Virus record (IMG/VR): IMGVR_UViG_3300008110_000026
Coordinates: 28,389-92,388 of that record
Length of the DNA stretch: 64,000 nucleotides
Direction: 5' to 3' (one strand)
DNA from: a virus
Shown here: positions 1 to 42,404 of the stretch, piece by piece
How positions within the stretch are numbered: position 1 is the first letter of the stretch
Layout: each line of letters opens with the position of its first letter
Notes under the pieces: model-generated
Seen by the model: the letters and a program-made list of their open reading frames with translations, nothing else
The model's database searches: none
What the model was told of the DNA's origin: nothing
Made by a program: the position numbers and the translations under genes

Positions 1-570
1 GTGTTATGGTATAACATTAACATGACTAACTTGCCCGATGAAGCACGCGAACTGTGGAGCGAATTTAAAGAAACTCGACTGTGTGCTAGCATAGATGATC
101 TAGATCTACGCAATCATTACATACGCTATCCTACATTTTGGAGTGATGTTAAGACTAATCTAAACACAGTATTAGAGTGGAGTCGAGCTTGTCCCAGTAT
201 AGTTGTGCGTATTACCACAACTGTTAGTGCATATAACTTCCCCTACTTGGATCTGTTTCTTAAATGGGCGCCCTGTCCAGTGGATCTAAACTATGTGTAT
301 GATCCTCATTACTTGAGTCCAATGGTACTGCATCCTGATATACGAGCTCGTATATTTGATCGCTATAGGACTACCATGGGCAATGATCCTCATCTAGGGT
401 CACTGTTAAGCATGTATAACAACTGTGATTGGAACCCGGAACATTGGGCTCAATACTGCCGTTACAATCATGTACTAGACGCTCAACGCGGTGCTGTTAC
501 TTGGGATCGCGTGTATCCTGACATGGCTGCGCTGTGTGATCAGATGAACATTAAGTGGGATTATAAATAA
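1..570 (+). CDS. C-terminal part of a probable twitch-type radical SAM protein (5' cut by window edge)
   Basis: The frame is open from the first base, so the true start probably lies outside the window. The visible 189 residues resemble the C-terminal part of the complete radical SAM protein at 11317-12645. Both have an RITTTVS/HSTITPVS strand, a loop of the form P-H-x-x-x-P-M, and a closing LD-x-x-R-x-x-x-W-x-x-x-YP motif. The Cys-rich cluster-binding N-terminus is not visible, so the family assignment rests on this C-terminal similarity alone. The next gene starts 4 bases after the stop, which suggests one operon. A TATAAATA octamer across the stop codon is probably created by the Tyr-Lys-stop codons. 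Confidence 0.5.
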   Translation: MLWYNINMTNLPDEARELWSEFKETRLCASIDDLDLRNHYIRYPTFWSDVKTNLNTVLEWSRACPSIVVRITTTVSAYNFPYLDLFLKWAPCPVDLNYVYDPHYLSPMVLHPDIRARIFDRYRTTMGNDPHLGSLLSMYNNCDWNPEHWAQYCRYNHVLDAQRGAVTWDRVYPDMAALCDQMNIKWDYK

Positions 571-574
571 GCAC

Positions 575-2128
575 ATGGACAGAATACAAACATTTTTAGA
601 CGTGTTGGCGCGGGAATACACCAACAATGGCTACGAGGGCCGCTACACACAGTTACTTAAATCAGCATTTGATCGTGGTTGGAACAGCTATAGCATGACC
701 GCACAGTACGAGCCCTTGCTTATAGCCATAGAAGACATGCGCTATAATCCCGATGGCAGTCAGCGTTTGGGCATACCCAACGGCTGGCCCAAGGGCAGAT
801 TAGAACTACAGCAGTTTCTAGATGAAAACTGGGCTGTGGGTAACCAGGGTCAAATTTGGGATTTGCAGATTGTGGATCAGGTAGAAGCACTGGTAGCATC
901 GGGTCGTATGCACATGAACAGTTGGTTTATCACACAGTGGGACATGGAGAATCGCGAGCCTTTGGGTCACGCAGGTCGATTGGCTGCGCTGGATACTATA
1001 CCCCAGGGTGAACGCTATGTGTTTCCAATCAGCATCAACGGGTCAGCACACTTTGTTTTAGCCAGCGTACTGGATCGTGGTGTGTGGATTCCACAGCGTG
1101 TGGTAGAGGATTGCAGACAGGGCCTGGCTCGCATACTGTTTCATGAAGTATATGAGGGTCACGGGTTCAACGACACACATGTTAAAACATTCCTAGAATC
1201 CCACAGTCGTGCCTACAACATTCCCATGAACACCATGGCATTTATGGATGCTAACTTTCTCACACCTGCGCTACAAGCAGAATATGGCAGCGTGGGCTTT
1301 TACTATCCCTATTGGGAGAATCATGTGGGCAGCGGACACGAATGGCATCATAACAATCGTGTTAAAGTAGACAGTCATATTAAACGATTGCGAGCAGGTG
1401 AATCTCGGCATCCCCACAACATCGTACATCTAAATCGTCGTCCTCGCTGGCATCGTAGTGTAAGCACAGCAGCCTGTTTCTATCGCATGAGTGATGCTAG
1501 TGTGCTGTGGACCTATACTGAACCTCCCAATGACTGGACTGCGGTAGGACCCTATGCGGGCAACAATCTCCGGGGCGATCCAGATTGGGATGCAGAGCGT
1601 TTTGTTAATGCCAGCCGCGGTGAGGGTGGTTATCCTCCCATTATTGATGATGACTATTTGAGCATAATACCCAAGCTATACGATGTGGACTGCTCTGTAA
1701 ACGACACATTCCTCAACTGTGATGTACAGTATCAGGGCGCTGTTAACTGGACCAACGAAACTATGTTTGTGGAACCTAACACAGTATTCTTCAGTGAAAA
1801 GACATTTAAGCCAATACTAGCAGCTCAGCCCTTTATACTAGCAGGTAATGCGGGCATGATGCGTCACTTACATGACTTGGGTTATAAGACTTTCCACCCC
1901 TATATTGATGAAAGCTACGACATGGAAACCAATCCCGCAAAGCGTATGAGCATGATATTAACAGAAGCAGAGCGTATAGCACGACTCAGCCCTGCCGAAA
2001 TGCGAGTGTTTTTGAAGCGTGTTGCGCCCACGGTCATACACAACTATGAACTAATACAACGTCGCATGTTGGAATGCACACCTAAAACCAAGATCATCAA
2101 CGACATTTATCAATGGGTACACAGTTAA
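575..2128 (+). CDS. Conserved unknown protein with SEKTFKP motif, possibly glycosyltransferase-like
   Basis: A soluble protein of 517 residues, rich in Trp, Tyr and His, with no signal peptide or membrane segment. The most recognisable part is near residues 405-450: an SEKTFKPI motif, then QPFILAG, and about 20 residues later LGYKTF and IDESYD. I know this arrangement from uncharacterised phage and bacterial proteins found near sugar-modifying genes, sometimes described as glycosyltransferase-like, but I cannot assign a reaction. It is packed between the radical SAM remnant and the SGNH genes (1 base to the next gene), so it probably acts with them. Isoleucine is often encoded by ATA, as in the following genes and unlike the minus-strand replication genes. 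Confidence 0.6.
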   Translation: MDRIQTFLDVLAREYTNNGYEGRYTQLLKSAFDRGWNSYSMTAQYEPLLIAIEDMRYNPDGSQRLGIPNGWPKGRLELQQFLDENWAVGNQGQIWDLQIVDQVEALVASGRMHMNSWFITQWDMENREPLGHAGRLAALDTIPQGERYVFPISINGSAHFVLASVLDRGVWIPQRVVEDCRQGLARILFHEVYEGHGFNDTHVKTFLESHSRAYNIPMNTMAFMDANFLTPALQAEYGSVGFYYPYWENHVGSGHEWHHNNRVKVDSHIKRLRAGESRHPHNIVHLNRRPRWHRSVSTAACFYRMSDASVLWTYTEPPNDWTAVGPYAGNNLRGDPDWDAERFVNASRGEGGYPPIIDDDYLSIIPKLYDVDCSVNDTFLNCDVQYQGAVNWTNETMFVEPNTVFFSEKTFKPILAAQPFILAGNAGMMRHLHDLGYKTFHPYIDESYDMETNPAKRMSMILTEAERIARLSPAEMRVFLKRVAPTVIHNYELIQRRMLECTPKTKIINDIYQWVHS

Positions 2129-2129
2129 T

Positions 2130-2963
2130 ATGTGGCAACATCTAGTAACCAGTGGATGCAGTTTCAGTGATAACCTGCGTCCCCCCAATGGCGATCTTAC
2201 TCGTTGGCCCATGTTTCTCGCAGACTATACAGGTATGAAGCTGTATAACCGAGGACAGGGCAGCGCGGGCAATGATTGGATTGCAGACAGCACTATATAT
2301 CAGCTTAGTGAACTGTTAAACCAAGGCTGCAAACCCCAGGAAATCATAGCCATAGTTATGTGGAGCGGTATTGATCGCAACAGTATCTTTATCAGCAGCG
2401 ATGGTACACCTAAATACGCGGATCTGCATGTGGAACAGTTTATGAGTAATCCCGCTAGTTTCACAGCTAATCCTGCTAATGAATACTATAATCCTCCCCG
2501 AGAAGGTTCAGGATGGCTGTTAGGGTCTGCACATTGCAGTTTCCCCAACGATAACATACAGCAGTACAAGCAGCTATTGGTAGCTCGCTACTTAAATGAC
2601 GAAGCATTAATGATTCGCAGCCTAGATAATTGGTTAAAGCTGCAATGGTTCTGTGCTGCACGGGGAGTTAAGTTAGTTAATTTAACTTATATGAATATAT
2701 GGCACTATCCAGGCTACGGTTATATCAGTGATAAAGATCAGACTTTAGAATCAATCCCCTATTTTTACGATCATTATGGTTCTAACATACAACACTTATA
2801 CAGGGAATTAGATCAAAGTCAATGGTTATTTTATGGTGATCGAGGTGGTATGTATGAATGGTGCAGAGCAGAAGGTCTGGGCTTTTACAGTGATCTCGTG
2901 CATCCCAGTATAGATAGTCATCGCAAGTTTGCAGAGGAGTGGCTATGGCCAAGAATATCATAA
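2130..2963 (+). CDS. SGNH/GDSL-hydrolase-like protein 1
   Basis: A 277-residue protein starting with a beta strand and the block I-like motif SGCSFSDN (Ser nucleophile near residue 10-12). Next come a block II-like Gly (NRGQGSAGND) and a C-terminal block V-like DLVHPS-x-x-SH that could supply the catalytic Asp and His. This matches the SGNH fold of esterases and acetylhydrolases that act on acetylated sugars. Substrate unknown. It is the first of four such genes in a row and overlaps the next by about 19 bases. No signal peptide is seen, so it probably acts in the cytoplasm or in the virion. Confidence 0.6.
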   Translation: MWQHLVTSGCSFSDNLRPPNGDLTRWPMFLADYTGMKLYNRGQGSAGNDWIADSTIYQLSELLNQGCKPQEIIAIVMWSGIDRNSIFISSDGTPKYADLHVEQFMSNPASFTANPANEYYNPPREGSGWLLGSAHCSFPNDNIQQYKQLLVARYLNDEALMIRSLDNWLKLQWFCAARGVKLVNLTYMNIWHYPGYGYISDKDQTLESIPYFYDHYGSNIQHLYRELDQSQWLFYGDRGGMYEWCRAEGLGFYSDLVHPSIDSHRKFAEEWLWPRIS

Positions 2964-3769
2964 AGCGTTTAGGCGTATGTGGGGACAGTTGGATGAGTGC
3001 TGTAAAGCCTCCCCGTGATGGTCACAGCAGACATTTCACACAGCAGATTGCTGAATATTTCGGTAGTGAATATGTAACATATGCTCGCGGCGCTTGTAGT
3101 AATCCCGTAATTAGACTGCAAATAGATGCGTGTATAGCTGCGGGCTGTGATTATGTTATAGTAAAAGATACTACACCAGATCGAGGTGAATTCCCCATTG
3201 GGGGCGGATATAGATTCAGAGATGGTATATTAAATGTATTATATCACGGTGATGATGTAAGCTGCGACAACAGTGACTTCAGCAGTATTGGTGTACAGCG
3301 TAATGCTAGTCTATTAAGCAATACATATAATAACATAGTTAAAGATGATGGTAGTGTGTTTAAAGACCCCAACGGACAGTTAATGGCCAGTGATTATCAC
3401 GGTTTTGATAGATTAAGTAACGGACAAGTGGGTAACCTACACAAGTATATACTATACTATCACGAGACTAATTGGCGACTGCATCAGGACGCTTGGATAT
3501 TGCGTGACGGACTGCGAGCATTAGATGATGCAGGTATAGCCTATAGCTACATCAGCAGCTATACTTACGGTGTGGGACTATTTGAACAAAGCGAAAAGAT
3601 TATATTACCCAATAGTCCGCTTAATCCCGCACACAGTGACTATGAATGTGCAGAAGGTGATCCACGCGGCTTGCCCAAAGCTCGTTATCATACGCATGTA
3701 GAGGAACAGGACGTGATAGCCAAAGCGTGGATAGATGTATTGCGAGGCAAGGGATATGGCAAAGTTTAA
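2945..3769 (+). CDS. SGNH/GDSL-hydrolase-like protein 2
   Basis: Starts with LGVCGDSWMS, a block I-like GDS motif with Ser followed by Trp, and has RGACSNP in the block II position. The C-terminus has an HTHVEEQDV segment that may hold the His of block V. A GTG at 2939 is in frame, but the ATG at 2945 is preferred because GAGGAG lies 5 bases upstream. It overlaps the previous gene and runs into the next, so the set looks translationally coupled. Sequence identity to the flanking SGNH genes is low by eye, so this is an old expansion rather than a recent duplication. Substrate unknown. Confidence 0.55.
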   Translation: MAKNIIKRLGVCGDSWMSAVKPPRDGHSRHFTQQIAEYFGSEYVTYARGACSNPVIRLQIDACIAAGCDYVIVKDTTPDRGEFPIGGGYRFRDGILNVLYHGDDVSCDNSDFSSIGVQRNASLLSNTYNNIVKDDGSVFKDPNGQLMASDYHGFDRLSNGQVGNLHKYILYYHETNWRLHQDAWILRDGLRALDDAGIAYSYISSYTYGVGLFEQSEKIILPNSPLNPAHSDYECAEGDPRGLPKARYHTHVEEQDVIAKAWIDVLRGKGYGKV

Positions 3770-4526
3770 AATACTAGTAGTAGGCGATAGTTTTGCACTA
3801 TTAGATAAAAAGCACAGTCACTGGGCTCGATTATGGGCTCACAAGCTAAATGGTGAAACTGAGCATGTAGCAATGAGCGGCGGAAGTCATGTAAGCATAG
3901 TTAATCACGCTATGGCAGTTAAACCCAATTTAAGTGAATATGCGGGCGTTATGTACTTTATTACGGATCTATTTAGACTAGAGGGTGTGGATCACAGTCA
4001 AAAGCCACCCGATGCGCCCTACAGTGATCACAACGCTATAGATGCACTACTACGCTTAAATGACTATAAAGATGAACGTCACGATCGTGATTGGAATAAT
4101 GCACTAGATTGGCAGCAGCGAGACCCACCTTTGGATTGGATACAGGCTTATAGCGGTTTTAGTGCTATGCCCACACTATACAGAGAACATCGTGTGCCCA
4201 CTGCGCTATACGATAATATCAGCTTGAGATGGCTAGCCACTGCTAATGCTACTGCACTACGCTACTACATACAGTTCTGTACTGCTCAGAATGTACCCTT
4301 TATCGGCATAAACAGCGCATGGGAGCAGGGTATTGATGTAATTAAGAGTACTACACCCTATAACAGTTGGTTAATGACCACTACGGGAGAGCATCGCAGT
4401 TTGATCGCTTATCATACCAGCAGCAGCAGTAATCACGTGGATATCGATACCGCAATGACTATGAGCAAGCGTTTCCATACTACTGCATACTCTGAGGGCT
4501 TGTTTCCCATTGCTATACAGAGTTAG
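3756..4526 (+). CDS. SGNH/GDSL-hydrolase-like protein 3
   Basis: The N-terminus FKILVVGDSFALLD is a clear block I motif (GDSF), followed by a Gly-rich MSGGSH block II-like segment. The ATG at 3756 is chosen over an upstream in-frame ATG at 3735 because it gives the usual short N-terminus before the first strand and follows a GAGG-containing stretch inside the previous gene. A block V Asp-x-x-His is not obvious; the C-terminal HVDIDTAMT segment may replace it. Without a clear Asp/His pair, hydrolase activity is uncertain. Last of the first SGNH run before a 290-base intergenic stretch. Confidence 0.5.
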   Translation: MAKFKILVVGDSFALLDKKHSHWARLWAHKLNGETEHVAMSGGSHVSIVNHAMAVKPNLSEYAGVMYFITDLFRLEGVDHSQKPPDAPYSDHNAIDALLRLNDYKDERHDRDWNNALDWQQRDPPLDWIQAYSGFSAMPTLYREHRVPTALYDNISLRWLATANATALRYYIQFCTAQNVPFIGINSAWEQGIDVIKSTTPYNSWLMTTTGEHRSLIAYHTSSSSNHVDIDTAMTMSKRFHTTAYSEGLFPIAIQS

Positions 4527-4815
4527 ATCACCAAGAACCGTCACGAATAGAAAGGCGGTAGGCTGTGGTGTTTTTACACCTGCGTGTTGAGCTGTATTTA
4601 CAGTCAATTATAGTGTAATAAGATTGGATTACGCTCTAATAACTCTTATTTACTATGTAATTAGCTGTGCATTACGGGAGTTTAACTCTCAATTACACAA
4701 GTTATTTTTGCATTTAAACGTGATAAAAATCAATTAAATGGGAAATAAATTGGTTTAATTTCAATATTAAATAATTAAGCTGAATAATTTCGCTAAGTAA
4801 TACAAGGAGCAGACT
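4527..4815 (+). other. Intergenic region, AT-rich, with short inverted repeats
   Basis: The longest gene-free stretch of the plus-strand block. It holds small perfect hairpins, GGTGT-TTTT-ACACC near 4567-4580 and CTGTA-TT-TACAG near 4595, then strongly AT-rich sequence up to the AAGGAG ribosome site at 4804-4809. I see no tRNA, no open frame with a ribosome site, and no convincing TTGACA or TATAAATA promoter. It probably separates two transcripts and may hold a weak promoter for the small gene at 4816. Confidence 0.4.
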
Positions 4816-4977
4816 ATGAGCGAACAGAATAAAAATGATTTACCGCAGAATTATGTGCCGCAGGATCAGGTGATTCCGCCCACACCCTTAGACAGTGATC
4901 TTACTCCTGAAGAGGAAGAAATCCTCAAGCGTAAGCTAGCAGAGCTACGTCGTCGAGACCCATTTATATACCGTTAA
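4816..4977 (+). CDS. Small conserved phage-type protein (53 aa)
   Basis: A 53-residue protein with an AAGGAG ribosome site 6 bases before its ATG, ending one base before the next ATG. The N-terminal half is disordered and Pro/Gln-rich. The C-terminal half is a charged helix beginning LTPEEEE and ending RRRDPFIY. Short proteins with this kind of ending occur in marine T4-like phages as unknowns. The ribosome site, tight coupling to the next gene and sensible composition make it a real gene. Function unknown. Confidence 0.6.
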   Translation: MSEQNKNDLPQNYVPQDQVIPPTPLDSDLTPEEEEILKRKLAELRRRDPFIYR

Positions 4978-4978
4978 T

Positions 4979-5680
4979 ATGCGATTAGTGTGCTTTGGAG
5001 ATAGTTTTACTGCTAGTGCAGGTATACCCGCTGAGGATATTCTCTCGGGTCGTCCACCCAGTTGGATTGACTTACTGGCAGAGCGTTGGGGCTGCGCGGG
5101 CATTACACGGGGTATCAATGGAACGGGGCCTTTAGAGCTATTACATCAACTACAGAATTTTGGTGAATTTCTTCCGGGGGATCGTGTATTTTGTGCATTT
5201 AGCAGCGTTAAGCGTTTTTGTCTAAGTCCTTATACACCCACTATACATCATTTAAGTGAATTAGCAGATCCGCATGAACATTATAATAATAAAAATTCTG
5301 CTATGGTCACGCAGCGGGAAATAGATATGGCTATACCTAACGTTAGTCGAGCAGATATGCAGCGTATTATTCAAGCACATGGTTGGTATGAATTATTTCT
5401 AAATACTGAATATCGTGAACGAAGTCTGCACTATGCAATATTCACGGCATTGGATGGTATAGCAGCAGCTAATCCACAAGCAGAGTTTTATGTGAAATAT
5501 TGTTTTATTCAGGATTATGCTTTACATCGCGAGATGAATTTGCAGAGTAAATTCTTTAAATTATTAGAAGGTGATATGTTCAGCATCTGCGGCGAGCAAG
5601 AGGGCATGGACATTACCAATCATTTTACTGTGGACAGCGTGGGGGATTTTGTGAATTATCTAGATGGAGCGATGCGATGA
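4979..5680 (+). CDS. SGNH/GDSL-hydrolase-like protein 4
   Basis: A 233-residue protein with an intact block I (VCFGDSFTASAG, Ser near residue 9) and NGTGPLE in the block II position, matching SGNH hydrolases. The C-terminal block V is not obvious: DITNHFT near residue 205 is the best candidate for the Asp/His pair. It starts one base after the small gene and overlaps the carbamoyltransferase start by four bases (ATGA), so the two are likely translationally coupled. Deacylation and carbamoylation of the same sugar or nucleotide would be a plausible pairing, but that is inference. Confidence 0.6.
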   Translation: MRLVCFGDSFTASAGIPAEDILSGRPPSWIDLLAERWGCAGITRGINGTGPLELLHQLQNFGEFLPGDRVFCAFSSVKRFCLSPYTPTIHHLSELADPHEHYNNKNSAMVTQREIDMAIPNVSRADMQRIIQAHGWYELFLNTEYRERSLHYAIFTALDGIAAANPQAEFYVKYCFIQDYALHREMNLQSKFFKLLEGDMFSICGEQEGMDITNHFTVDSVGDFVNYLDGAMR

Positions 5681-7191
5681 TAATTTGGGGTATCAGCAGC
5701 ATGTATCACGACGCTGCGCTGTCAGTATTGGATAATAATAAAATCCTATTTGCGGGTCACAGCGAGCGTTATAGTCGTGAGAAAAACGACGCATTTTTAA
5801 ATCGCAAATTAATTAATGCGGGCCTGGATGCAGGGTTTCCTGAGGTTATAGCACTACATGAAACTGCTTGGGCTAAACGATTGCGCTGTGCTTATAGCAG
5901 AGATTGGCAGGGTCTGCGTGAGCCCACACAAACTGATTGGATTCGTCGCTTTTATCCAGAACTGCGAGATGTGCCCATTGTAAACTATTGGCATCATCAA
6001 ACACATGCGGCTGCGGGCGTTTTAACGTCAAAGTTTGATGACTGTGCTGTTATGGTAATTGATGCTATAGGTGAATGGGATACTGCTAGTATTTGGCACT
6101 GGCGTGATGGTAAATTGCGTAAGCTGCACAGAGTTCGCTATCCTCATAGTCTAGGACTATTTTATAGTGCTGTTACACATCGCGTGGGACTCAAGCCCAA
6201 TGAAGATGAATATATTTTGATGGGTATGGCAGCATATGGTAATCCTGATCGTGCGCGACAACTGAGCAGCGAAATTGATCGCGATTATTTTAAGAGTAGT
6301 GCTGGTCCTATGGCAGGTGCTCGTGCTGTGCTGACTCGTAAGAATCTACACAGGGGTTTAAGTCCCAATAGTTTCCCTGGCGTGGATCACTTTGACCTAG
6401 CATGGGCTGCACAGGATCAAGTGGAACGACGAGTTATTGCATATGCAAATTATGCAAAACAATTAACAGGTTCAGACAATTTGGTATTCATGGGAGGGGT
6501 AGCCCTTAACTGTGTTGCCAACAGTAAATTGTTTGATGTATTCTCAAATGTTCACATCATGCCCAATCCGGGCGATGCGGGCAGCAGCTTGGGTGCAGCG
6601 GCTCTGCACTTATATAACACATCAGGTAAGCATGTGGATTGGCGTGGTCCTTATTTGGGTCATAACATTCCAGGTGCATATCCTGTGAGCAGAGCCCTGC
6701 AGAGTTTGTCCGCAGGTGAAATATTTGGGATAGCAAATGGGCGAGCTGAATTTGGTCCCAGAGCATTGGGTAACCGTAGTCTATTAGCAGATCCACGAGG
6801 AGGTGACATTAAAGAACGAATGAACGCTATCAAGCAGCGTCAGCAGTTTCGCCCATTTGCACCAGTTATATTAGAAGAGCAAGCAGACAAGTATTTTGAT
6901 ATGCCTCAAAAGAATTTGGCTAGTCCCTATATGCAGTTTGTGGCTCGTTGTAAATATCCGCAGGCCTTCCCTGCTATTATACATGCAGACGGAACCAGCA
7001 GAGTACAAACAGTTAATCAACGTCAACACCCAGGACTGTATATGCTGTTGCGTGAGTTTTTCAAACGCACAGGCTGTCCAATGTTGGTGAATACCAGCCT
7101 TAATATCAAAGGTCAACCCATAGTGAATACTATAGAAGATGCGGCAGCATTTGCCAAACACTACGGCGTAAATGTACACACCCATGAATAG
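5677..7191 (+). CDS. NodU/CmcH/TobZ-family carbamoyltransferase
   Basis: This family uses carbamoyl phosphate and ATP to carbamoylate hydroxyl groups of sugars, antibiotics or, in some phages, modified DNA bases. The 504 residues span the whole two-domain family: an N-terminal WGISSMYHDAA strand-loop, the metal-binding HH-x-x-H near residues 106-110, the long PHSLGLFYS...MGMAAYG block, GGVALN, GDAGSSLGAA, then the C-terminal domain with GRAEFGPRALGNRS, RPFAP and VNTSLN. No expected block is missing, so it should be active. The substrate cannot be read from the sequence. No hydroxymethylpyrimidine-forming gene is visible in the window, so carbamoylation of DNA stays a hypothesis; a surface sugar or tailoring target is the alternative. 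Confidence 0.9.
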   Translation: MIIWGISSMYHDAALSVLDNNKILFAGHSERYSREKNDAFLNRKLINAGLDAGFPEVIALHETAWAKRLRCAYSRDWQGLREPTQTDWIRRFYPELRDVPIVNYWHHQTHAAAGVLTSKFDDCAVMVIDAIGEWDTASIWHWRDGKLRKLHRVRYPHSLGLFYSAVTHRVGLKPNEDEYILMGMAAYGNPDRARQLSSEIDRDYFKSSAGPMAGARAVLTRKNLHRGLSPNSFPGVDHFDLAWAAQDQVERRVIAYANYAKQLTGSDNLVFMGGVALNCVANSKLFDVFSNVHIMPNPGDAGSSLGAAALHLYNTSGKHVDWRGPYLGHNIPGAYPVSRALQSLSAGEIFGIANGRAEFGPRALGNRSLLADPRGGDIKERMNAIKQRQQFRPFAPVILEEQADKYFDMPQKNLASPYMQFVARCKYPQAFPAIIHADGTSRVQTVNQRQHPGLYMLLREFFKRTGCPMLVNTSLNIKGQPIVNTIEDAAAFAKHYGVNVHTHE

Positions 7192-7360
7192 AACGCAAAA
7201 ATTAGTAGTTAAAGAACGCTGCCCTGTGTGTGCTGCTACTCAGGGCAAGCCACATGATCTTGGCTGCGTGTTTGGCAATGTTATTGCTGACTCACGATAT
7301 TTAGAATCACAATTAGACGAGCTGCTCAAGCAAGGCGGTCCCGTAGAATCTGATGTTTGA
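7184..7360 (+). CDS. Small Cys-containing protein, possible metal-binding knuckle
   Basis: About 58 residues from the ATG at 7184; an in-frame ATG at 7172 is also possible but lies deeper in the previous gene. It holds CPVC and, about ten residues later, H-x-x-x-C, a set of four ligands that could bind zinc. It overlaps the carbamoyltransferase end by 8 bases and the next gene start by 8 bases, so all three are probably co-translated. Function unknown. Confidence 0.5.
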   Translation: MNRTQKLVVKERCPVCAATQGKPHDLGCVFGNVIADSRYLESQLDELLKQGGPVESDV

Positions 7361-10300
7361 TGTTTATTATCTTGGCGAAAATCCTCAGTTAAAAGCCACG
7401 CTGCCTTTTGCGCGAGCTGTGAGCAAACTAACTGACATTCAGCCCGATACTAAAATGTATTGGCTCATTGAGCCCAGCATTGAAGTCATAGACTATAGTG
7501 TGTTTGAATATCGTCCGCCTGACTATGATCAAACCTATGAGCATGTTTGGAAATGGAACAGCAGTAACTACGGCGGCATTAAATTGTTGCCTAAAACCGA
7601 GCCTGCAGGAACTAAACAGATAAATCGTGTGGTATGTCGCAAAAGTTTTGACATATTATATACGCTCACACCAGAAGAGTATTTTGACGAACATCCGTAT
7701 GCTAGCCATGTGTGGTGCGTGGATCCTGAATATAAATTAAACAATAATATTGAATGGGCTCCGGATAACTTTGAACCTAAGTTCATACATAGTTTTCATT
7801 TACGAGGCCAATTGGAGCACAAGTACCCACAGGCCGAGGGCGGTATTAAATTATATCCGCGTAATTGGAGAACCTGTGCAGTTAAATATCATAGCTTTTT
7901 AGATGCAGGTGTTGAGTATCCTGTGTTGTATGTTAGTGATGTAGAAGATTATGCTCAGCGGGATAAGTTTGCTGATGAATATGTTTGGCTTATAGATCGC
8001 GATCACAGCATTAATCCTGCTACACTGGATTGGGTACCCAGCCCGTTTGAACACAACTATATTCATGTGTTTCGTATGCCCTATCAGCTTGGAGAAAAGT
8101 ATCCACAGGCTATGGGAGGAGTTAGACTTGTACCCCGCATTTGGCAAGACGCAGAAATAAAAATACATCCTGCATGTCCAGTAGCCGATGCAGAATATGA
8201 TGTATTTTATATTGATGAAGATCAGTTCAACAGCGATACCTACAGCGAATATGCTGCTAGAAGCAAAACAGATTGGTTCTGGATTGTGGATAGAGATCAT
8301 GACTTTAACGGAAAACTATTGTATGTTCCTGCACCGCACGAACAAGAATATATTCATGTGTTTAAGATACCAGATCACCTAGACGATAGATACCCTCAGA
8401 CTGTTACTGAGCCATGGGATAATCGATGCGGTGGTGTGCGTCTTGTGCATAAGAACTACGACATGACCAAGCACAAGTATCAAGCAGGTATTGTACCAGT
8501 TCGCTATGATATTTTTTATACCAACGACATTAATAACTATGAAGCTTATGCTCGCAAAAGCAGAACTAAGATGTTTTGGTTAGTGGATCAGGAGCATGAG
8601 CTTAACGACGTGTTTAACTATGTTCCTCATCGTTATGATCAAAAGTATATTCATATATTCAAAATACCAGGTCAACTACAGCACAAATATCCTTTGAGTA
8701 TTACTAATGTAAGCGACAACCGCACCGGTGGTGTTAAGTTAGTGCCTGTTAAGTACAACGAAACAGACGCAAAATACATATCAGGCTCTCCCACAGGCAA
8801 CAAACAATATCCAATTCTTTATGTAGCTGACCCCACTGATTATTCTATTGTTACACAGGACTGCTGGCTTATTGATAAAGAATATAAACTAGACAGTGAT
8901 GTATCATGGGTGCCACCAGACTTCCAGCGCAATATGATTCATACTTTTCATCTTGGTGGCCAGCTTAAACACAAATATCCAGAAGCAATGGGCGGCATCC
9001 GTTGGGTTCCAAAGTCATGGAGCAATGCAGAGCTGGTAATACACAGCATCAGTCCATTTAGGGATTTAGAGTTTGAACGGTTCAGCAGCGAAGAAGAAGG
9101 CCGTGTTAACAGTAAAAATAACTGGTTCTGGGTAATAGACCCAGATGTTGATGTATTAGATAATTTTAACTTTGACTTTATTCCTGAGACATGGGACGAA
9201 GGCAAAACACATATTTGGCAGAAGCTAAATCCAATCACAGGTAGACAATATGATTATGCCGGGGTCATGTTGTGTCCGAAAGTACCGCAGGCCAAAGGGC
9301 GTCCCAAATACATCCGCGAGCCTGCATGTACTCAAAAGCAATATCCGGTAATTTACTTAGATCCACAACTCAGTATCGTTGAACAACTTACACACACAAA
9401 CAGTACTGTAGCTAATTCCATGTATTGGGTTGTGGATCCTTTTACTAAAGTGCAGCCAGACTTTAAGTTTGACTACTATCCAACACAATGGGATCAACAA
9501 AATGTTCATGTATTTGCTGACGAGGACGGTAATTACAGAAACATTAGACTGTATCCTAGGGGAACTTTCAACAAAGATTATTCGTTAGCTGAGATTGAAA
9601 ACAACAGTTTTGAAAAGCTCAAGCAAATAAATACTATTGGTAGTCTGCGTCCCACATGGCCAGTTGTGCATCTACAAGATGTAACCAAAACCGAACTGAC
9701 CAATGCACTACAGGAAGCGATGAATCGGGGAGTACCGTTCCTGTGGACCATTGACCCCGATGTGCGTGTCGAACAATGCATTTTGGATGCAGGCTACCTT
9801 CCACAAATATCAAACATTGATAAGGTTCATGTGTGGCAGAGAATAAACCCGCACAACAGTAAAACTCATAGCTACGGTGGGCTACGATTGTGGCCAACTA
9901 ATATTAATGTTGATGCGTTGACCACTGATGCAATAAGATTAAACAAGATAAAGAACTTGCAATATGTGAAGCAAACAGGCAGCACTATTAAACCCTATGA
10001 CATTGTGTTCTTAAGTTACCACGAGCCTACTGCACAAAGCGCCTACGAGCGTCTTACAGCGCGATTCTCTGCAACCTGGATCAAAGATGTTCAGGGTATC
10101 TTTGATGCACATAAAGCTGCTGCTAGCAGCGTAAACAGTAAAATGTTTTGGGTTGTAGACGCTGATGCTGACATTGCTGATGACTTTGATTTTAGTTATA
10201 TTCCTGATGTTTACGATCAAGAAGTAGTGCATGTATGGGCAAGTAGGAATCCTATTACAGGATTGGAATATGGCTACGGCGGTGTTAAACTGTTTAATAC

Positions 10301-10655
10301 GGCGCAGGTGCGTACAGCAACTAGTTGGGGGTTAGACTTTACTACAGGTCTTAGCACTCGTTTTAAAGCAATGCCGCAGGTAAGTTGCGTTACGCGATTT
10401 AATACAGATTCCTATAGCACATGGCGTAGTGCTTTCCGTGAATGCGTTAAGTTAACACTAAAGGAAGATGCTGAAAGCAAGGATAGATTAGACGGCTGGT
10501 TACACCCTGTTCCCGATGCATTCTTTAGACATGATGCTAAACAGGGTGCAGAAGAAGGCCGTGCTTATGCATTAGCTAACAAAAACAATGTAGAAGCATT
10601 AGCAAAGATAAATGATTACGAATGGTTATATGAGCGATACAATCAAACTAGATAA
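7353..10655 (+). CDS. Giant protein of ten tandem glycosyltransferase-like modules
   Basis: An 1100-residue protein of ten tandem modules, each roughly 80-110 residues. Each has a W-x-(V/I)-D-x-(D/E) strand, an aromatic-rich x-x-P-x-x-(Y/W/F)-(D/E) loop, an (I/V)H-(V/I/T)-(F/W) strand and a closing GG-(V/I)-(K/R)-L-x-P. The last module (about 930-1100) is fullest: VVDADAD at 934-940 resembles the DxD metal/nucleotide-sugar site of GT-A enzymes, and it carries a 120-residue extension with TRFNTD and a C-terminal NDYEWLYE. Earlier copies have lost parts of the acidic site (IEPS, VDPE, VDQE, IDKE). I infer one possibly catalytic domain preceded by nine binding or scaffold copies. No secretion signal. 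Ends overlapping the methyltransferase start. Confidence 0.6.
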   Translation: MFDVYYLGENPQLKATLPFARAVSKLTDIQPDTKMYWLIEPSIEVIDYSVFEYRPPDYDQTYEHVWKWNSSNYGGIKLLPKTEPAGTKQINRVVCRKSFDILYTLTPEEYFDEHPYASHVWCVDPEYKLNNNIEWAPDNFEPKFIHSFHLRGQLEHKYPQAEGGIKLYPRNWRTCAVKYHSFLDAGVEYPVLYVSDVEDYAQRDKFADEYVWLIDRDHSINPATLDWVPSPFEHNYIHVFRMPYQLGEKYPQAMGGVRLVPRIWQDAEIKIHPACPVADAEYDVFYIDEDQFNSDTYSEYAARSKTDWFWIVDRDHDFNGKLLYVPAPHEQEYIHVFKIPDHLDDRYPQTVTEPWDNRCGGVRLVHKNYDMTKHKYQAGIVPVRYDIFYTNDINNYEAYARKSRTKMFWLVDQEHELNDVFNYVPHRYDQKYIHIFKIPGQLQHKYPLSITNVSDNRTGGVKLVPVKYNETDAKYISGSPTGNKQYPILYVADPTDYSIVTQDCWLIDKEYKLDSDVSWVPPDFQRNMIHTFHLGGQLKHKYPEAMGGIRWVPKSWSNAELVIHSISPFRDLEFERFSSEEEGRVNSKNNWFWVIDPDVDVLDNFNFDFIPETWDEGKTHIWQKLNPITGRQYDYAGVMLCPKVPQAKGRPKYIREPACTQKQYPVIYLDPQLSIVEQLTHTNSTVANSMYWVVDPFTKVQPDFKFDYYPTQWDQQNVHVFADEDGNYRNIRLYPRGTFNKDYSLAEIENNSFEKLKQINTIGSLRPTWPVVHLQDVTKTELTNALQEAMNRGVPFLWTIDPDVRVEQCILDAGYLPQISNIDKVHVWQRINPHNSKTHSYGGLRLWPTNINVDALTTDAIRLNKIKNLQYVKQTGSTIKPYDIVFLSYHEPTAQSAYERLTARFSATWIKDVQGIFDAHKAAASSVNSKMFWVVDADADIADDFDFSYIPDVYDQEVVHVWASRNPITGLEYGYGGVKLFNTAQVRTATSWGLDFTTGLSTRFKAMPQVSCVTRFNTDSYSTWRSAFRECVKLTLKEDAESKDRLDGWLHPVPDAFFRHDAKQGAEEGRAYALANKNNVEALAKINDYEWLYERYNQTR

Positions 10656-11307
10656 TTGGCAGGCTGTATCTGATTTTGTTGATGCACATATAAGTATCAA
10701 GCCCAGTTACTTCGAGCGAGCTGTGCAGGGTAACTATCCTAAAGACGCATTTAGCAAAGGGCAGTTAGCCAGCAAAGCATGGTTGTTATCTAAATTAGAT
10801 AGTAGCATAACAAATCATTTGCCATTTGATTCAGTTATCGCAGTTCTAGGCTGTTGGATTGGTACATTAGTTGAGCCTTTATTGGATGCAACAATGGTAT
10901 CTAGAGTGTACGGCATTGATCTAGATCCTAGAGCAATTGAATTGGCAGAGAAGTTTAATCAGCATCTAGTACAGGATGATTGGAGGTTCAAAGGTGTAGT
11001 AGCTGATGCTTCTACCTTAACAACATCCAATATGGAATTTGAAACTGCTGGCGAACTAATAAGGGTTACACCTAAAGTAGTAATTAATACCAGTTGCGAG
11101 CATATGGACACTCATTGGTTTGAAACAGCTAATTCAGATCAATTGATTATTATGCAAACCAATGACAGTGAAGGGTACGACGGTCATATCAACATTTGTA
11201 AGGACCTAGCTGACCTCAATGCTAAATATCCTATGTCCACCATACTTTATCAAGGACAACTAACTATCCCTGCATACACAAGATTTATGCAGATTGGATA
11301 CAAATAA
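10630..11307 (+). CDS. SAM-dependent methyltransferase (class I-like)
   Basis: A Rossmann-fold protein: AVLGCWIGTL is a motif I glycine loop, GIDLDPRAIELA is the acidic ribose-binding strand after it, and VVADAST follows as motif III-like. INTSCEHMD occupies the motif IV position; it lacks the NPPY of base-directed DNA methyltransferases, so the substrate is more likely a small molecule or protein. The ATG at 10630, overlapping the previous gene, is preferred over an upstream in-frame ATG at 10612. About 225 residues. It lies between the repeat protein and the radical SAM protein, probably in one transcript. Confidence 0.65.
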   Translation: MSDTIKLDNWQAVSDFVDAHISIKPSYFERAVQGNYPKDAFSKGQLASKAWLLSKLDSSITNHLPFDSVIAVLGCWIGTLVEPLLDATMVSRVYGIDLDPRAIELAEKFNQHLVQDDWRFKGVVADASTLTTSNMEFETAGELIRVTPKVVINTSCEHMDTHWFETANSDQLIIMQTNDSEGYDGHINICKDLADLNAKYPMSTILYQGQLTIPAYTRFMQIGYK

Positions 11308-11316
11308 GAGAACACA

Positions 11317-12645
11317 ATGACTTTTAAGCCACCACACAGTTTCCCAATTAACACAGCAACATCATGCCAATTCAAGTGGACATGGAGCACAGTATTTCTA
11401 TCAGTGGGCACAAGTTCCAGCTGTCATCGTTGTAAAGGTTGGGACGTGAGTGAGATTATGGACGACTTCCATAACCACCCTGGTAAGCTAGAAGATAGAA
11501 AGCAAATGCTCGACGGTAAGTGGCCTGGAAATGGTTGTGAGTATTGTCGTGATATTGAAGTAGCAGGCGGCACCAGCGAACGAACTGCATATATTAATGA
11601 TATGCAAGTAAGTCCACCAGAGCTTGACGTTGATCCTACTGCTGTAAAAGTCACACCAAGAATCTTAGAAGTTTATTTCAACAATGTCTGTAACCAAAAG
11701 TGCGTTTACTGTTCTCCTTTCTTTAGCAGTCTAATTCAAAAGGAAGTTGAGAAGTTTGGACCTTTAGAAAACGAATATGATCTAATGGGCTTTAAGGAAA
11801 AACCAGGCTACGAACAACGCAAAGATAAGTTTTGGATATGGATGGACAAGAATTCACATCACTTGTTACAGTTTCAGATCCTAGGTGGCGAACCTTTGTA
11901 TCAAGATGAGTTTGAAGAATGCTTAGAGTTCTTTGAACAGCGTAGTCATCCTAATTTAAATTGGAAGATCTTTAGTAACCTAAAACACCGGCATGATCTC
12001 TTTAAAAAGAAGATTGATCGTATTTCTGCTTTGATCAGAGAAGGCAAGCTCAAGAGCTTTGAAATTGTTTGCAGTATGGATTGCTGGGGACCACAAGCAG
12101 AATATAGCCGCTATGGTGTTAAGCTAGACGAGTGGGAGCAGAACTTCCAGTACCTAGTTGATAATCATCTAGTAGATATCAGCGTACACTCAACTATTAC
12201 CCCAGTGTCACTACCAACTATGGCAGAGTTCTATAGAAAGATTATGGCATGGAACACATATCGCATTGAGAAGCAGGGTGCTATGGGCTTAGTTGATACA
12301 CAGATTAAAGTTGTTAACTTTGGTTGGAATATTGTAGTAACACCAACGCATATGGATCCGTGTATGCTAGGCGAATATGCTGCACCATTCTTTGACGAAC
12401 TGCTATCAGTTATTCCCGACGACGATAACCGTAAGCTCTATCTAAAGGGCTTTAAGACCAAAGTAGTTAAGAGTCCTATTGATCCTATTCGTTTGCATCG
12501 TTTAGCAAACTATCTAGATAAGATTGACTTTAGAAGAAAAACAAATTGGCGTTCATTGTATCCTTGGCTTGAGGAAATTGTTAATTCATATATTCCAAAC
12601 GAGCCTGTTCCTGAAGTAAACGCTACACTAATCAAAAACATCTAA
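11317..12645 (+). CDS. Twitch-type radical SAM protein
   Basis: A 442-residue radical SAM enzyme with the CNQKCVYC cluster motif (CxxxCxxC) near residues 127-134, preceded by a family-typical LEVYFNN strand, and GGEP about 65 residues later for SAM binding. The N-terminal 95 residues carry two further Cys pairs, SCHRC and CEYC, suggesting an extra metal site as in twitch/SPASM relatives. It generates a 5'-deoxyadenosyl radical; the substrate is unknown. The C-terminus resembles the truncated protein at the left window edge, so the block appears to be bracketed by two paralogues. The gene ends just before a strong hairpin terminator. Confidence 0.8.
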   Translation: MTFKPPHSFPINTATSCQFKWTWSTVFLSVGTSSSCHRCKGWDVSEIMDDFHNHPGKLEDRKQMLDGKWPGNGCEYCRDIEVAGGTSERTAYINDMQVSPPELDVDPTAVKVTPRILEVYFNNVCNQKCVYCSPFFSSLIQKEVEKFGPLENEYDLMGFKEKPGYEQRKDKFWIWMDKNSHHLLQFQILGGEPLYQDEFEECLEFFEQRSHPNLNWKIFSNLKHRHDLFKKKIDRISALIREGKLKSFEIVCSMDCWGPQAEYSRYGVKLDEWEQNFQYLVDNHLVDISVHSTITPVSLPTMAEFYRKIMAWNTYRIEKQGAMGLVDTQIKVVNFGWNIVVTPTHMDPCMLGEYAAPFFDELLSVIPDDDNRKLYLKGFKTKVVKSPIDPIRLHRLANYLDKIDFRRKTNWRSLYPWLEEIVNSYIPNEPVPEVNATLIKNI

Positions 12646-12660
12646 TACACAGTCAAAAAG

Positions 12661-12682
12661 AAACCCTCGTTCAACGAGGGTT
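12661..12682. terminator. Bidirectional hairpin terminator at convergent gene ends
   Basis: AACCCTCGT and ACGAGGGTT form a perfect 9-bp stem with a 3-base loop. Read on the minus strand the stem is followed by TTTCTTTTTG, so it is a good terminator for the beta-barrel gene. On the plus strand the tail (CCTCTTGTTC) is weaker but would still serve the radical SAM operon. Confidence 0.85.
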
Positions 12683-12707
12683 CCTCTTGTTCTAATGTTA
12701 AAAAATA

Positions 12708-13286
12708 TTAGAAGCTGTGTGTAATACCAACACCTACTTCATCAGTACGAAGGCTACCTGTAGTGCGATAATATGTTGCACCAATAGCAGTCTTTTCAGT
12801 GATGTTCCATTCAACACCTGAATGTAAACGATCTTCTTTCATTCTGTTACCGTTGAAGCTTTCACGATGGCGGTAGCCAGCCTTTAGTGTAAGAGCATCA
12901 CCCAATGGATATGCAGCATTAACGCCTGCACCCCAAAACTCAAAGTTACCGCCAACTGTTGGTGATACCTTCTTGTTTAGTGACTGACCTACTTCAGCAA
13001 AAGCCGCAGAGCTTAAACCAAATACACCTGGAAGGGCTGTACCTAGCTTACCTGAAAGAAGTGTTCCAACAGGACCTTCATTTTCTGGTTGTACTGTCTG
13101 TAGCTCTAGACCATATTGAACTAGACCGTTGTATAGTGCATCGTTGTACTGAACACGATATTCGGTTGAGTTGGTCTGCTTGTTTGCAACACCACCAAAG
13201 CGCACTTCACCTTCAAGGGTTCCGGCACTTGCTGGTACTGCAATTGCTGCTGATACGACTGTTAAAGCCAATAATAATTTTTTCAT
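12708..13286 (-). CDS. Outer-membrane beta-barrel protein with signal peptide
   Basis: The first 21 residues are a Sec signal peptide (KK, hydrophobic core, ASA cleavage motif). The mature part is built of short amphipathic strands with aromatic girdles (for example TLKAGYRHR, TAIGATYYR) and ends in Phe (GVGITHSF), the C-terminal signature used for insertion by the BAM machinery. At 192 residues it would make a barrel of about eight strands. It resembles Lom/PagC-type small barrels only in architecture. Possible roles are masking or altering the receptor to block superinfection, or changing the host surface. A late-type promoter, structured leader and own terminator show it is expressed as a single gene. 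Confidence 0.75.
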   Translation of the reverse strand: MKKLLLALTVVSAAIAVPASAGTLEGEVRFGGVANKQTNSTEYRVQYNDALYNGLVQYGLELQTVQPENEGPVGTLLSGKLGTALPGVFGLSSAAFAEVGQSLNKKVSPTVGGNFEFWGAGVNAAYPLGDALTLKAGYRHRESFNGNRMKEDRLHSGVEWNITEKTAIGATYYRTTGSLRTDEVGVGITHSF

Positions 13287-13302
13287 TCAAATATCCTCTT
13301 TC

Positions 13303-13361
13303 ATAGTTTTTAAAACTATTAGTTAGTTAGCTGAAAGACAAGGTCTCCCAGTACTAATAGT
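13303..13361 (-). promoter_or_regulatory. Structured leader with two mutually exclusive hairpins
   Basis: In the transcript of the beta-barrel gene, ACTATTAGT (13353-13361) can pair with ACTAATAGT (13315-13323) across about 29 bases. The segment 13312-13319 can instead pair with 13303-13310, an 8-bp stem around a single base directly before the GAAAGAGG ribosome site. The two stems share bases 13315-13319, so they cannot form together. This is the layout of a switch controlling translation, but no known riboswitch motif is recognised. Confidence 0.4.
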
Positions 13362-13443
13362 TATCATGGAAATGTGTTTGGGAGTGTGAATCCTGATTAC
13401 AGGTTATTGCAAGTGTGCAACAATATGTGATTCTACTGTGTAT

Positions 13444-13451
13444 TATTTATA
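13444..13451 (-). promoter_or_regulatory. Late-type promoter octamer TATAAATA
   Basis: Exact T4 late consensus on the minus strand, about 150 bases upstream of the beta-barrel gene and overlapping the U-tract of the terminator that ends the upstream operon. Confidence 0.6.
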
Positions 13452-13480
13452 AAAAAATGCCCTGTTTTTACACAGGGCAT
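13451..13480 (-). terminator. Rho-independent terminator of the 13496-16659 operon
   Basis: ATGCCCTG and CAGGGCAT form a perfect 8-bp stem, followed on the minus strand by seven T residues. Confidence 0.85.
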
Positions 13481-13495
13481 TTATAGTCAGAGATG

Positions 13496-13834
13496 TTATT
13501 CCTTAAATATCTTTTTTAAGATACTATTAGTTTCTTTCTCCAGATGTAGCCTTACTTTGTCCAAGTCGATAACAATTTCAACTGATTCAATGTCATCTTT
13601 GATACCTAATTGTCTTATGTACTTGTCGATATTTGTATAGCTAATATTTTTTTGATTATCGTTTACGCTATACGAATCTCCACCAACGGTATTAACTACA
13701 ATTTTGTGTAAAAATTCTGTTGGTATGTCAGAAGGTTCAATTTTACTTAGAATACCCTTGACTATACCTGAATCATTTGATTTGGATTGCTTACCAAGTA
13801 GGACAATTCTAGGCGGACCTTTTGGTTTCGCCAC
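13496..13834 (-). CDS. Unknown phage protein (112 aa)
   Basis: A GTG start with GAGGA seven bases upstream. The N-terminus is basic (MAKPKGPPR) and the C-terminus is a charged helix. No motif is recognised. It is the last gene before a strong terminator in an operon headed by the VWA protein. Confidence 0.55.
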   Translation of the reverse strand: MAKPKGPPRIVLLGKQSKSNDSGIVKGILSKIEPSDIPTEFLHKIVVNTVGGDSYSVNDNQKNISYTNIDKYIRQLGIKDDIESVEIVIDLDKVRLHLEKETNSILKKIFKE

Positions 13835-28879: not shown

Positions 28880-29560
28880 TTACTTACAGCCTTTGTTTAC
28901 AATGTTCATAAACTCTGCACGAACCGCAGGGTCGCTCTTAAAGCAACCGCCCAGCTTGCTGGTAACTGTGCTAGAGCCAACATCTTCAACTCCTCTACTT
29001 TTTACGCAATAGTGTTGTGCGTCAATAACCACTGCTACATTTTCTGTTTCTAGAATGTAGCTTAGTGCATGATAAACCTGTTCAGTTAGGCGCTCTTGAA
29101 TCTGGGGACGCTTGCTGAAGTATTCAACGATACGATTGATCTTTGAAAGACCTAGTACCTTCTGTTTGGGGATATAACCTACTGTTGCAAGTCCATCGAT
29201 AATAACAAAATGATGTTCGCAGTTGCTCTGTACATTAACATTGCGCTCTACAACCATCTCATCGTATTTCATTTTATTGTCAACGGTGGTACACTTGGGG
29301 AAAGCATCGTAGTCTAGCCCCCAAAAGATTTCGTTGACATACATCTTAGCAACACGCTTTGGTGTGTCCATGAGACTGTCGTCTGATAGATCGAGACCCA
29401 TGGTCTTCATAATTTCGGTAAAGTGACGCTCGATAATTTCAATCTTATCTTTGCGGTCAACACCGTTATCTACTGTAGGGGTTTCAACACCCATCTGTAC
29501 TAGGTGTTCGTGAACGCGACTGCCTAAATCAGGGTCGCACTTAGTTTTATTGAATGACAT
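28880..29560 (-). CDS. folE: GTP cyclohydrolase I
   Basis: Converts GTP to 7,8-dihydroneopterin triphosphate, the first step toward 7-deazaguanines. The 226-residue length fits the family. Zinc ligands are Cys114 and His117 in CEHHF, and Cys185 in HYCVKSRGV. The pterin-binding TPKRVAKMY and the [21 protein letters not shown] block are intact. It heads an operon that leads to QueE. Confidence 0.92.
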
Positions 29561-42129: not shown

Positions 42130-42137
42130 TTTTAATC

Positions 42138-42401: not shown

Positions 42402-42404
42402 TTG

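What the first reader, a model, noticed from the sequence alone, without database searches (positions are those of the whole stretch)
1..12645. Plus-strand accessory block bracketed by radical SAM proteins: a candidate unknown tailoring system
The block combines radical SAM enzyme (partial, left edge), SEKTFKP protein, four SGNH proteins, carbamoyltransferase, small Cys protein, repeat GT-like protein, methyltransferase and a second radical SAM enzyme, nearly all with overlapping or adjacent ends. No member is a replication or virion gene. Together they look like a pathway that builds, transfers, acylates, carbamoylates and methylates one product. I know of no described phage system with this set.
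Basis: inference. Interest (0 to 1): 0.7.

Follow-up and report, generated by a model that had tools for sequence, protein, structure and literature searches.

The report
Phage sugar-decorating island with hidden microprotein
A virus of bacteria carries a 30-kb block of genes that look made to build and decorate a sugar coat, and inside it lies an unannotated tiny protein that, in many phages and some bacteria, sits next to one kind of sugar-decorating enzyme.

Summary
The block is real but cut by the window edge. It runs from about 17 kb left of the window to 12645 (29.8 kb, plus strand), behind virion and tail-fibre genes. It holds five N_Twi radical SAM enzymes (NF033640), a NodU-type O-carbamoyltransferase, a many-repeat GT-A protein, NeuB-like, nucleotide-sugar dehydrogenase, methyltransferase-like and SGNH-like genes. 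Best reading: a cytosolic glycan assembly and tailoring island, probably for virion sugar. Relatives keep a core (microprotein, NodU, repeat GT) while radical SAM, SGNH and SEK genes come and go. Radical SAM counts over cut-off run from 0 to 14 per contig, GT repeats from 2 to 17.

Window 4816-4977 encodes a 53-aa protein of a family (154 distinct members read) ending like ELRKRDPFIY(K/R)-stop. It has ribosome-binding sites, varied codons, and a usual place before short-type NodU in phages, Streptomyces, Mesorhizobium and Nonomuraea. Two DUF5989 proteins beside long-type NodU end in PFIYTLF. I propose it is NodU's small partner. An AlphaFold docking attempt was inconclusive, and 28 of 80 viral NodU loci lack it nearby. 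It is unlikely to be a radical SAM peptide substrate, since it also occurs where no such enzyme was found.

The parts
1..570 (+). C-terminal part of N_Twi radical SAM protein 4 (whole gene L003:9702-10958, 418 aa)
   Evidence: NF033640 335.7 bits against cut-off 170; N-terminal SPASM match PF13186 3.2e-6; ORF
575..2128 (+). SEK protein, 517 aa, family with a T/SEKTFKP...PFI..G...LGF.TF..DESYD motif; possibly a glycosyltransferase (inference)
   Evidence: 20-member alignment, invariant E395 E408 D449 R457; no Pfam or PDB match
2130..2963 (+). SGNH-like protein, DUF6071
   Evidence: PF19547 28.5 bits, cut-off 27; DUF6071 genes also lie beside NodU in Streptomyces and Mesorhizobium plasmids
2945..3769 (+). 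SGNH-like by N-terminal GDS motif only
   Evidence: no Pfam match; motif
3735..4526 (+). SGNH-like by N-terminal GDS motif only
   Evidence: no Pfam match; motif
4527..4815 (.). 289-base AT-rich gap without a called gene before the microprotein; possible promoter region (inference)
   Evidence: sequence; over window 1-13600 promoter-like sites are no more frequent than in shuffles
4816..4977 (+). 53-aa microprotein ending ELRRRDPFIYR-stop; proposed small partner of NodU
   Evidence: AAGGAG six bases before the ATG; family of 154 distinct peptides; codon and ribosome-site evidence; no Pfam, PHROG or NCBIfam match
4979..5680 (+). SGNH/GDSL-like protein
   Evidence: PF13472 E 2e-4, below cut-off
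5677..7191 (+). short-type NodU O-carbamoyltransferase, 504 aa
   Evidence: PF16861 1.4e-55, PF02543 4.3e-41; PHROG 1601; profile matches to NovN-type enzyme, GdmN, TobZ
7172..7360 (+). 62-aa protein with CPVC, matched only in the closest contig
   Evidence: no family match
7353..10655 (+). repeat glycosyltransferase-like protein, 1100 aa: 10 repeats of about 95 aa, the last one inside a GT-A domain with DADAD
   Evidence: repeat search; AlphaFold2 mean pLDDT 79.4; GT-A matches over 880-1017, Z up to 10.9
10612..11307 (+). methyltransferase-like protein (weak)
   Evidence: PF13649 4.8e-4, below cut-off; recurs behind the repeat GT in window-like loci
11317..12645 (+). N_Twi radical SAM protein 5
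   Evidence: NF033640 209.5 bits; CX3CX2C and four N-terminal Cys columns invariant in all five

Best explanation
The window block is the right-hand part of a 29.8-kb cytosolic glycan assembly and tailoring island that sits behind virion and tail-fibre genes. GT-A-like proteins, with the multi-repeat protein as a core member, would extend or bind a sugar chain made from phage-supplied nucleotide sugars. SGNH-like enzymes, a methyltransferase, the NodU carbamoyltransferase and N_Twi radical SAM enzymes would then decorate it. The most likely acceptor is a virion protein, perhaps a tail fibre (inference). The microprotein at 4816-4977 would be a small partner of short-type NodU, contacting it through its C-terminal PFIY motif, much as DUF5989 (SxtK) may do for long-type NodU. 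Shown here: the gene set, the conserved core, the repeats and GT-A fold of the C-terminal domain, and the reality and NodU association of the microprotein. Inferred: the product, its acceptor, and physical contact between microprotein and NodU.
For: The block extends left to G000 11243 and holds five NF033640 proteins, a NeuB family protein, UDPG/GDP-Man dehydrogenase and class II aldolase. Left of it lie a virion structural protein (PHROG 10938, 3.6e-72) and a protein with a tail fibre match (PHROG 19602, 1.4e-11). The slot between u06 and w13 is 30.6 kb here and 4.9 kb in L019. Of 29 proteins of the block scanned for hydropathy (u07-u24, w01-w11; four called ORFs of 51-66 aa were not scanned), only u23 (2.52, 95 aa) and w10 (1.68) exceed 1.6, so no flippase or polymerase is apparent. 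Microprotein: present in 18 of 18 GT- or radical-SAM-derived loci that cover the spot (about 14 distinct phages); 69 of 80 motif loci carry NodU in the DNA held; in a NodU-led sample, the best 80 of 596, 47 have it within 2.5 kb on the same strand, 30 of them ending at the NodU match start, 45 of 47 with DPFIY although others were allowed; 5 more have a divergent peptide there, four ending YIY and one FTY. Ribosome-site-like sequence before 112 of 144 starts against 11 at a control spot; third codon positions vary. Reversed-pattern control 0 in 34 contigs. Bacteria: 5 of 9 short-type loci (3 of them at the NodU start) and two plasmids, with some change in the tail (DPFMYK, DPYLYK); 0 of 71 long-type loci carry it upstream within 3 kb, while 6 of 71 have a downstream ORF ending PFIY, PFLY or PFVY plus three residues.
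Against: No acceptor, product or expression evidence. AlphaFold2 on a microprotein-linker-NodU read-through of L290 folded the helix (pLDDT 82-88) but not the motif (block 21-30 at 69, block 31-40 at 38), so docking is not supported. 28 of 80 NodU-led viral loci have neither the motif peptide within 2.5 kb nor a divergent one; on whole contigs 6 of the 33 loci without a nearby motif hit have the pattern elsewhere. 4 of 9 short-type bacterial loci lack it in the DNA held. So it is not strictly required. In the window an SGNH-like gene lies between microprotein and NodU. DUF5989 does not match any of eight microproteins tested. The methyltransferase and three of four SGNH assignments in the window are weak, and the upstream genes I call GT-like (u07, u09), SGNH-like (u12, u14) and sulfotransferase-like (u16) have no Pfam match.
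Confidence: 0.5

Rival explanations
1. The island remodels the host surface (LPS or capsule) during infection, for example to block re-infection, rather than the virion.
For: P-SSM2 carries NodU together with heptose kinase and phosphoheptose isomerase genes, 4.8 kb behind a tail fibre gene. NeuB-like and nucleotide-sugar dehydrogenase genes are typical of surface glycans (family knowledge). A porin-like gene with a signal-like N-terminus follows the block.
Against: No protein of flippase, polymerase or lipid-carrier transferase type seen in the block by family scans and a simple hydropathy scan of 29 proteins. In L018 and L019, where the left side is seen, the slot also follows relatives of the tail-side genes u04 and u06.
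Confidence: 0.3
2. The tiny protein is a peptide substrate (RiPP-like precursor) of the neighbouring radical SAM enzymes.
For: Small ORF with a nearly constant C-terminus beside radical SAM genes with SPASM-like Cys sets; the motif is doubled in one ORF of L008.
Against: 14 of 16 contigs with the microprotein have no N_Twi radical SAM over cut-off; I chose the 16, most because none was seen nearby, two of them (L043, L082) carried such a label, and all are fragments. The Nonomuraea, Geodermatophilus and Collimonas genomes with it have none over cut-off, the two marine bins have many. The tail hardly varies, unlike most peptide cores (family knowledge).
Confidence: 0.05
3. The genes make a diffusible small metabolite rather than a macromolecular glycan.
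For: NodU relatives with solved structures act on antibiotics: decarbamoylnovobiocin carbamoyltransferase, GdmN, TobZ; Streptomyces and Mesorhizobium plasmids carry short-type NodU with DUF6071.
Against: A many-repeat GT, and no peptide synthetase or polyketide synthase match in the family scans made of the block.
Confidence: 0.1

Closest known systems
Prochlorococcus phage P-SSM2 sugar gene cluster (NC_006883, NodU at 236,397-238,199)
   Same: A NodU carbamoyltransferase among sugar genes, 4.8 kb behind a tail fibre gene
   Different: NodU only 28.6% identical; no N_Twi radical SAM match; no PFIY microprotein found beside NodU in the stretch read
SxtI-SxtJ-SxtK type carbamoyltransferase sets (NodU + SxtJ family + DUF5989), as in Aquisphaera and Planctomyces plasmids
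   Same: NodU with a tiny protein nearby whose C-terminus holds PFIY; [quoted passage not shown]
   Different: DUF5989 has a hydrophobic, membrane-like helix (my reading), ends PFIYTLF and lies downstream with SxtJ; long-type NodU; the phage peptides have no Pfam match
Glycosyltransferases of large aquatic phages ('moraphages')
   Same: Core glycosyltransferases and mention of virion glycosylation (PMC12619734, passages seen)
   Different: No occurrence of 'carbamoyltransferase' or 'radical SAM' in the text searched
GT-A glycosyltransferases such as B4GALNT1, LH3, mimivirus R699
   Same: C-terminal domain of the repeat protein aligns over 880-1017, Z up to 10.9; Foldseek LH3 and R699 E below 1e-3, with low whole-chain TM-scores
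   Different: Nine extra half-domain-like repeats; 2 to 17 repeats in relatives

Membership tests
NodU/TobZ O-carbamoyltransferase | Carbam_trans_N and Carbam_trans_C domains | tested here: met
   PF02543 4.3e-41, PF16861 1.4e-55
NodU/TobZ O-carbamoyltransferase | Carbamoyl transfer to a hydroxyl group | not testable with these tools
   needs enzyme assay; H106, H107 and H110 invariant in 15 members, their catalytic role is recalled from TobZ
N_Twi radical SAM (NF033640) | curated score cut-off 170 bits | tested here: met
   five proteins, 209.5 to 335.7 bits
N_Twi radical SAM (NF033640) | CX3CX2C and N-terminal auxiliary Cys set | tested here: met
   C125 C129 C132 and C17 C36 C74 C77 invariant in five
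GT-A glycosyltransferase (window 7353-10655) | GT-A fold with DxD in the C-terminal domain | tested here: met
   Z up to 10.9 over 880-1017; DADAD in the sequence
GT-A glycosyltransferase (window 7353-10655) | the nine upstream repeats are working GT domains | tested here: inconclusive
   about 95 aa each, DxD mostly degenerate by eye; barely covered in the structure search
DUF5989 / SxtK | match to PF19451 | tested here: not met
   0 of 8 microproteins at E up to 10; 0 in own record (where no control rang)
DUF5989 / SxtK | tiny protein beside NodU with C-terminal PFIY | tested here: met
DUF5989 / SxtK | hydrophobic membrane-like helix (my reading of two members) | tested here: not met
   window peptide maximum 19-residue hydropathy -0.26
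RiPP precursor with radical SAM maturase | peptide accompanied by its maturase | tested here: not met
   14 of 16 chosen contigs and 3 of 5 bacterial genomes without N_Twi radical SAM over cut-off; other radical SAM families were not searched
SGNH/DUF6071 (window 2130-2963) | Pfam cut-off | tested here: met
   28.5 bits against 27
SGNH (window 2945-3769 and 3735-4526) | Pfam match and C-terminal DxxH | tested here: inconclusive
   no Pfam match; no C-terminal [DE]xxH found

The most novel reading that the evidence does not exclude
The proteins of mostly 33-55 aa ending ELRKRDPFIY(K/R) are an unnoticed family of small subunits for a whole branch of carbamoyltransferases in phages and bacteria. 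They and DUF5989/SxtK use one PFIY tail rule to switch on or anchor NodU enzymes. In the phages this module drives carbamoylation of a virion glycan that is further edited by radical SAM sets of up to 14 enzymes per contig.
Probability: 0.35. Interest if true: 0.78.

Novelty: new variant of a known kind. Interest (0 to 1): 0.62.

Why it matters
Proteins of this size are easily missed by gene callers: the gene table held for the Streptomyces and Mesorhizobium plasmids, which is incomplete, lists no gene at the two copies. If the family is a carbamoyltransferase subunit, it explains why such enzymes come with tiny neighbours, gives a simple two-gene test, and offers a DNA marker for phage glycan islands. 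The radical SAM arrays, 10 to 14 over cut-off on each of six viral contigs, point to chemistry in uncultured phages; the two radical SAM proteins that I searched with found no close relative among 50,697 phage records.

Tried and rejected
Peptide substrate of radical SAM enzymes: set aside because the microprotein and NodU occur without N_Twi enzymes. Membership of DUF5989: rejected by Pfam. Docking of the PFIY tail on NodU by AlphaFold2 on an in-frame read-through: inconclusive. PDB profile searches with the repeat protein and the SEK family gave nothing; the radical SAM 4 sequence gave only two matches, E 0.5 and 0.58. Pfam on 20 SEK members gave nothing. DNA-level relatives in the phage collection: none. 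Promoter and terminator scans were not above shuffles. Literature: the searches listed no paper that I recognised as being on this module; none held DUF5989 by name or printed DPFIYK, DPFIYR or RDPFIY; the library lacks most subscription papers and all preprints. A link between the number of radical SAM genes and of GT repeats: looked at by eye, none clear. The NodU-led viral loci without any such peptide remain unexplained. In the NodU tree the label needs 11 changes, so gain or loss was repeated; FastTree and long branches limit it. Much of the 154-peptide set comes from the pattern scan, which fixes the last residues, so the unbiased figure is that (45 of 47 DPFIY; -5 is E in 37, -4 is L in 36, -2 is K in 42).
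Full report
What the window shows. The window is the last 64,000 bases of a 92,388-base virus record. I read the rest of the record in stretches. On the left lie a virion structural protein and a protein with a tail fibre match (PHROGs 10938 and 19602), ending at base 10,513 of the record with an unmatched gene. Then come two genes that I call GT-like by reading (no Pfam match), a class II aldolase between them, a relative of the repeat GT, two SGNH-like genes by motif, three radical SAM genes, a sulfotransferase-like protein by my reading (no Pfam match), a NeuB family protein, a methyltransferase, a UDP-glucose/GDP-mannose dehydrogenase, a second SEK protein, some small ORFs, and the fourth radical SAM gene whose tail opens the window. 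From the first GT-like gene to the last radical SAM gene the block spans 29.8 kb.

Families. All five radical SAM proteins pass the NCBIfam cut-off for N_Twi_rSAM, NF033640, and share CX3CX2C and four N-terminal cysteine columns. The carbamoyltransferase is clear. SGNH calls are mixed, the methyltransferase at 10612-11307 is weak, and the SEK family has no Pfam or PDB relative but keeps four invariant residues in 20 members.

The repeat protein. The 1100-aa protein has ten repeats of about 95 residues; among its relatives counted, the number runs from 2 to 17 (the repeat model was refined on these same proteins). The AlphaFold2 model has mean pLDDT 79.4 and pTM 0.45. Its C-terminal domain, residues 880-1017, matches GT-A enzymes with Z up to 10.9, and Foldseek's best PDB matches are LH3 and mimivirus R699, at low TM-score. 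Two uncharacterised proteins of uncultured phages are strong matches, E 2.8e-40 and 1.5e-37. The first nine repeats look like half domains with mostly decayed DxD.

Neighbourhoods. A search with the repeat protein gave 17 viral loci and one with the last radical SAM gave 8, one contig being in both. Microprotein, NodU and repeat GT recur in those that cover them, with the methyltransferase-like gene behind the GT in the window-like phages. Radical SAM, SGNH and SEK genes vary. L009 and L012 carry the left half inverted, facing the right half. In L019 the slot between u06 and the w13/w14 side is 4.9 kb, with five plus-strand genes (GT-like or unlabelled) and one minus-strand ORF, against 30.6 kb here (the 106-aa ORF taken as w13 in L019 is matched by place, w14 by sequence). 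This reads as an island that grows in one slot.

Radical SAM arrays. In 23 records searched, 15 have at least one N_Twi radical SAM over the cut-off; six viral contigs of 116 to 352 kb have 10 to 14 each by my count of the listed rows; the own record has 5; P-SSM2, HTVC008M and C48C1 have none over it; none of 14 control genomes does. The 23 were chosen by me from the loci at hand, not sampled at random.

The microprotein. The 53-aa ORF at 4816-4977 follows AAGGAG, six bases off, and ends ELRRRDPFIYR-stop. The same kind of tail closes an ORF in 18 of 18 loci covering the spot, including a 34-aa form in L023-L029 and, in L007, an ORF of 355 aa as called (about 14 distinct phages, as L005/L022 share a contig and L006/L010, L014/L015 and L024/L025 look alike). 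That scan fixes the motif. Five more have a divergent peptide there. 28 have neither nearby; among the 33 without a motif hit nearby, 6 contigs have the pattern elsewhere. Third codon positions vary and ribosome-site-like sequence precedes 112 of 144 starts against 11 at a control spot, so it is very likely a translated gene under protein-level selection.

Beyond phages. Of 80 bacterial NodU loci, the best of 576 in a capped scan, nine form the short type at 46-51% identity and 71 the long type at 32-36%. Five of nine short-type loci have the peptide: three at the NodU start, one 0.6 kb before, one 5.6 kb after. Two of these five, L161 and L162, lie in genome bins with 10 and 14 N_Twi matches over cut-off by my count and may be phage contigs; the other three genomes have none over it. 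Streptomyces sp. Mg1 and Mesorhizobium huakuii plasmids have a peptide before NodU (tails DPFMYK and DPFIYE) with no gene listed there. None of 71 long-type loci has it upstream within 3 kb; six have a downstream ORF ending PFIY, PFLY or PFVY plus three residues. Two proteins of that kind in planctomycete plasmids are DUF5989 by Pfam. In a tree, 89 short-type NodU proteins are one side of a branch (SH-like 94), with 11 changes of the peptide label (FastTree, long branches).

Mechanism. NodU enzymes make carbamoyl-adenylate and pass the carbamoyl group to a hydroxyl (family knowledge). A tiny protein with a nearly fixed C-terminal tail beside the enzyme suggests a subunit. The part before the tail is basic in most members and net negative in 13 of 154, so the tail is the shared part. 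That DUF5989, a different sequence beside a different NodU type, also carries PFIY at its end is the best hint that the tail meets NodU. A paper on cyanobacterial clusters proposes joint action of the corresponding trio (PMC2679770, passages seen). AlphaFold2 on a read-through chain did not place the tail, so contact remains inferred.

What it makes. The absence of evident transporters or polymerases (29 proteins scanned) and the place behind virion genes favour a sugar made in the cytosol and put on a virion protein. Host surface change is the main rival. None of this is shown by experiment.

Novelty. The repeat GT and last radical SAM protein have no match in 50,697 phage records; radical SAM 4 has three weak ones; NodU has 140, the best-ranked 43% identical, in an unannotated single-cell marine virus that also carries a peptide of this kind (tail DPYIYEE) before NodU. 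Sugar islands in phages and tiny NodU neighbours are known kinds; this combination and this microprotein family were not found in the literature searches named under Tried and rejected.

Noticed in passing
window 12708-13286 (-): Porin-like beta-barrel protein with a signal-like N-terminus right behind the block (Porin_4 4.3e-5, below cut-off); a 338-aa ORF takes the place in L005.
   Followed up: partly
window 27203-28126 and 28880-29560 (-): A QueE-like radical SAM gene (name by my reading; Radical_SAM 1.6e-4, below cut-off) and GTP cyclohydrolase I (1.8e-62): a possible 7-deazaguanine pathway.
   Followed up: partly
window 40901-43692 (-): A second small tailoring-like group: SGNH-like ORF by reading, 2OG-Fe(II) oxygenase (1.6e-8), weak sulfotransferase match, another oxygenase-like ORF by reading.
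   Followed up: no
L008:8068-8304 (+): One ORF holds the ELRRRDPFIYR motif twice, once inside and once at the C-terminus.
   Followed up: no
L150 (before 11892) and L151 (before 10001): Microprotein ORFs, with no gene listed, directly before NodU in Streptomyces sp. Mg1 and Mesorhizobium huakuii plasmids, both with a DUF6071 gene beside NodU.
   Followed up: yes
L161 and L162 and their genome bins: Marine bacterial genome bins with phage-like arrays of N_Twi radical SAM genes; the contigs may be phage DNA binned with bacteria.
   Followed up: partly
L244, L247, L262, L308, L312 before NodU: Divergent 27-53-aa peptides ending YIY or FTY at the NodU start, possibly far members of the same family.
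   Followed up: no
L032, L038, L051, L053, L057 and similar loci: A separate phage group with a constant gene order around microprotein and NodU and no radical SAM gene labelled in the DNA held; L038, L051 and L053 have none over cut-off on their contigs either.
   Followed up: partly
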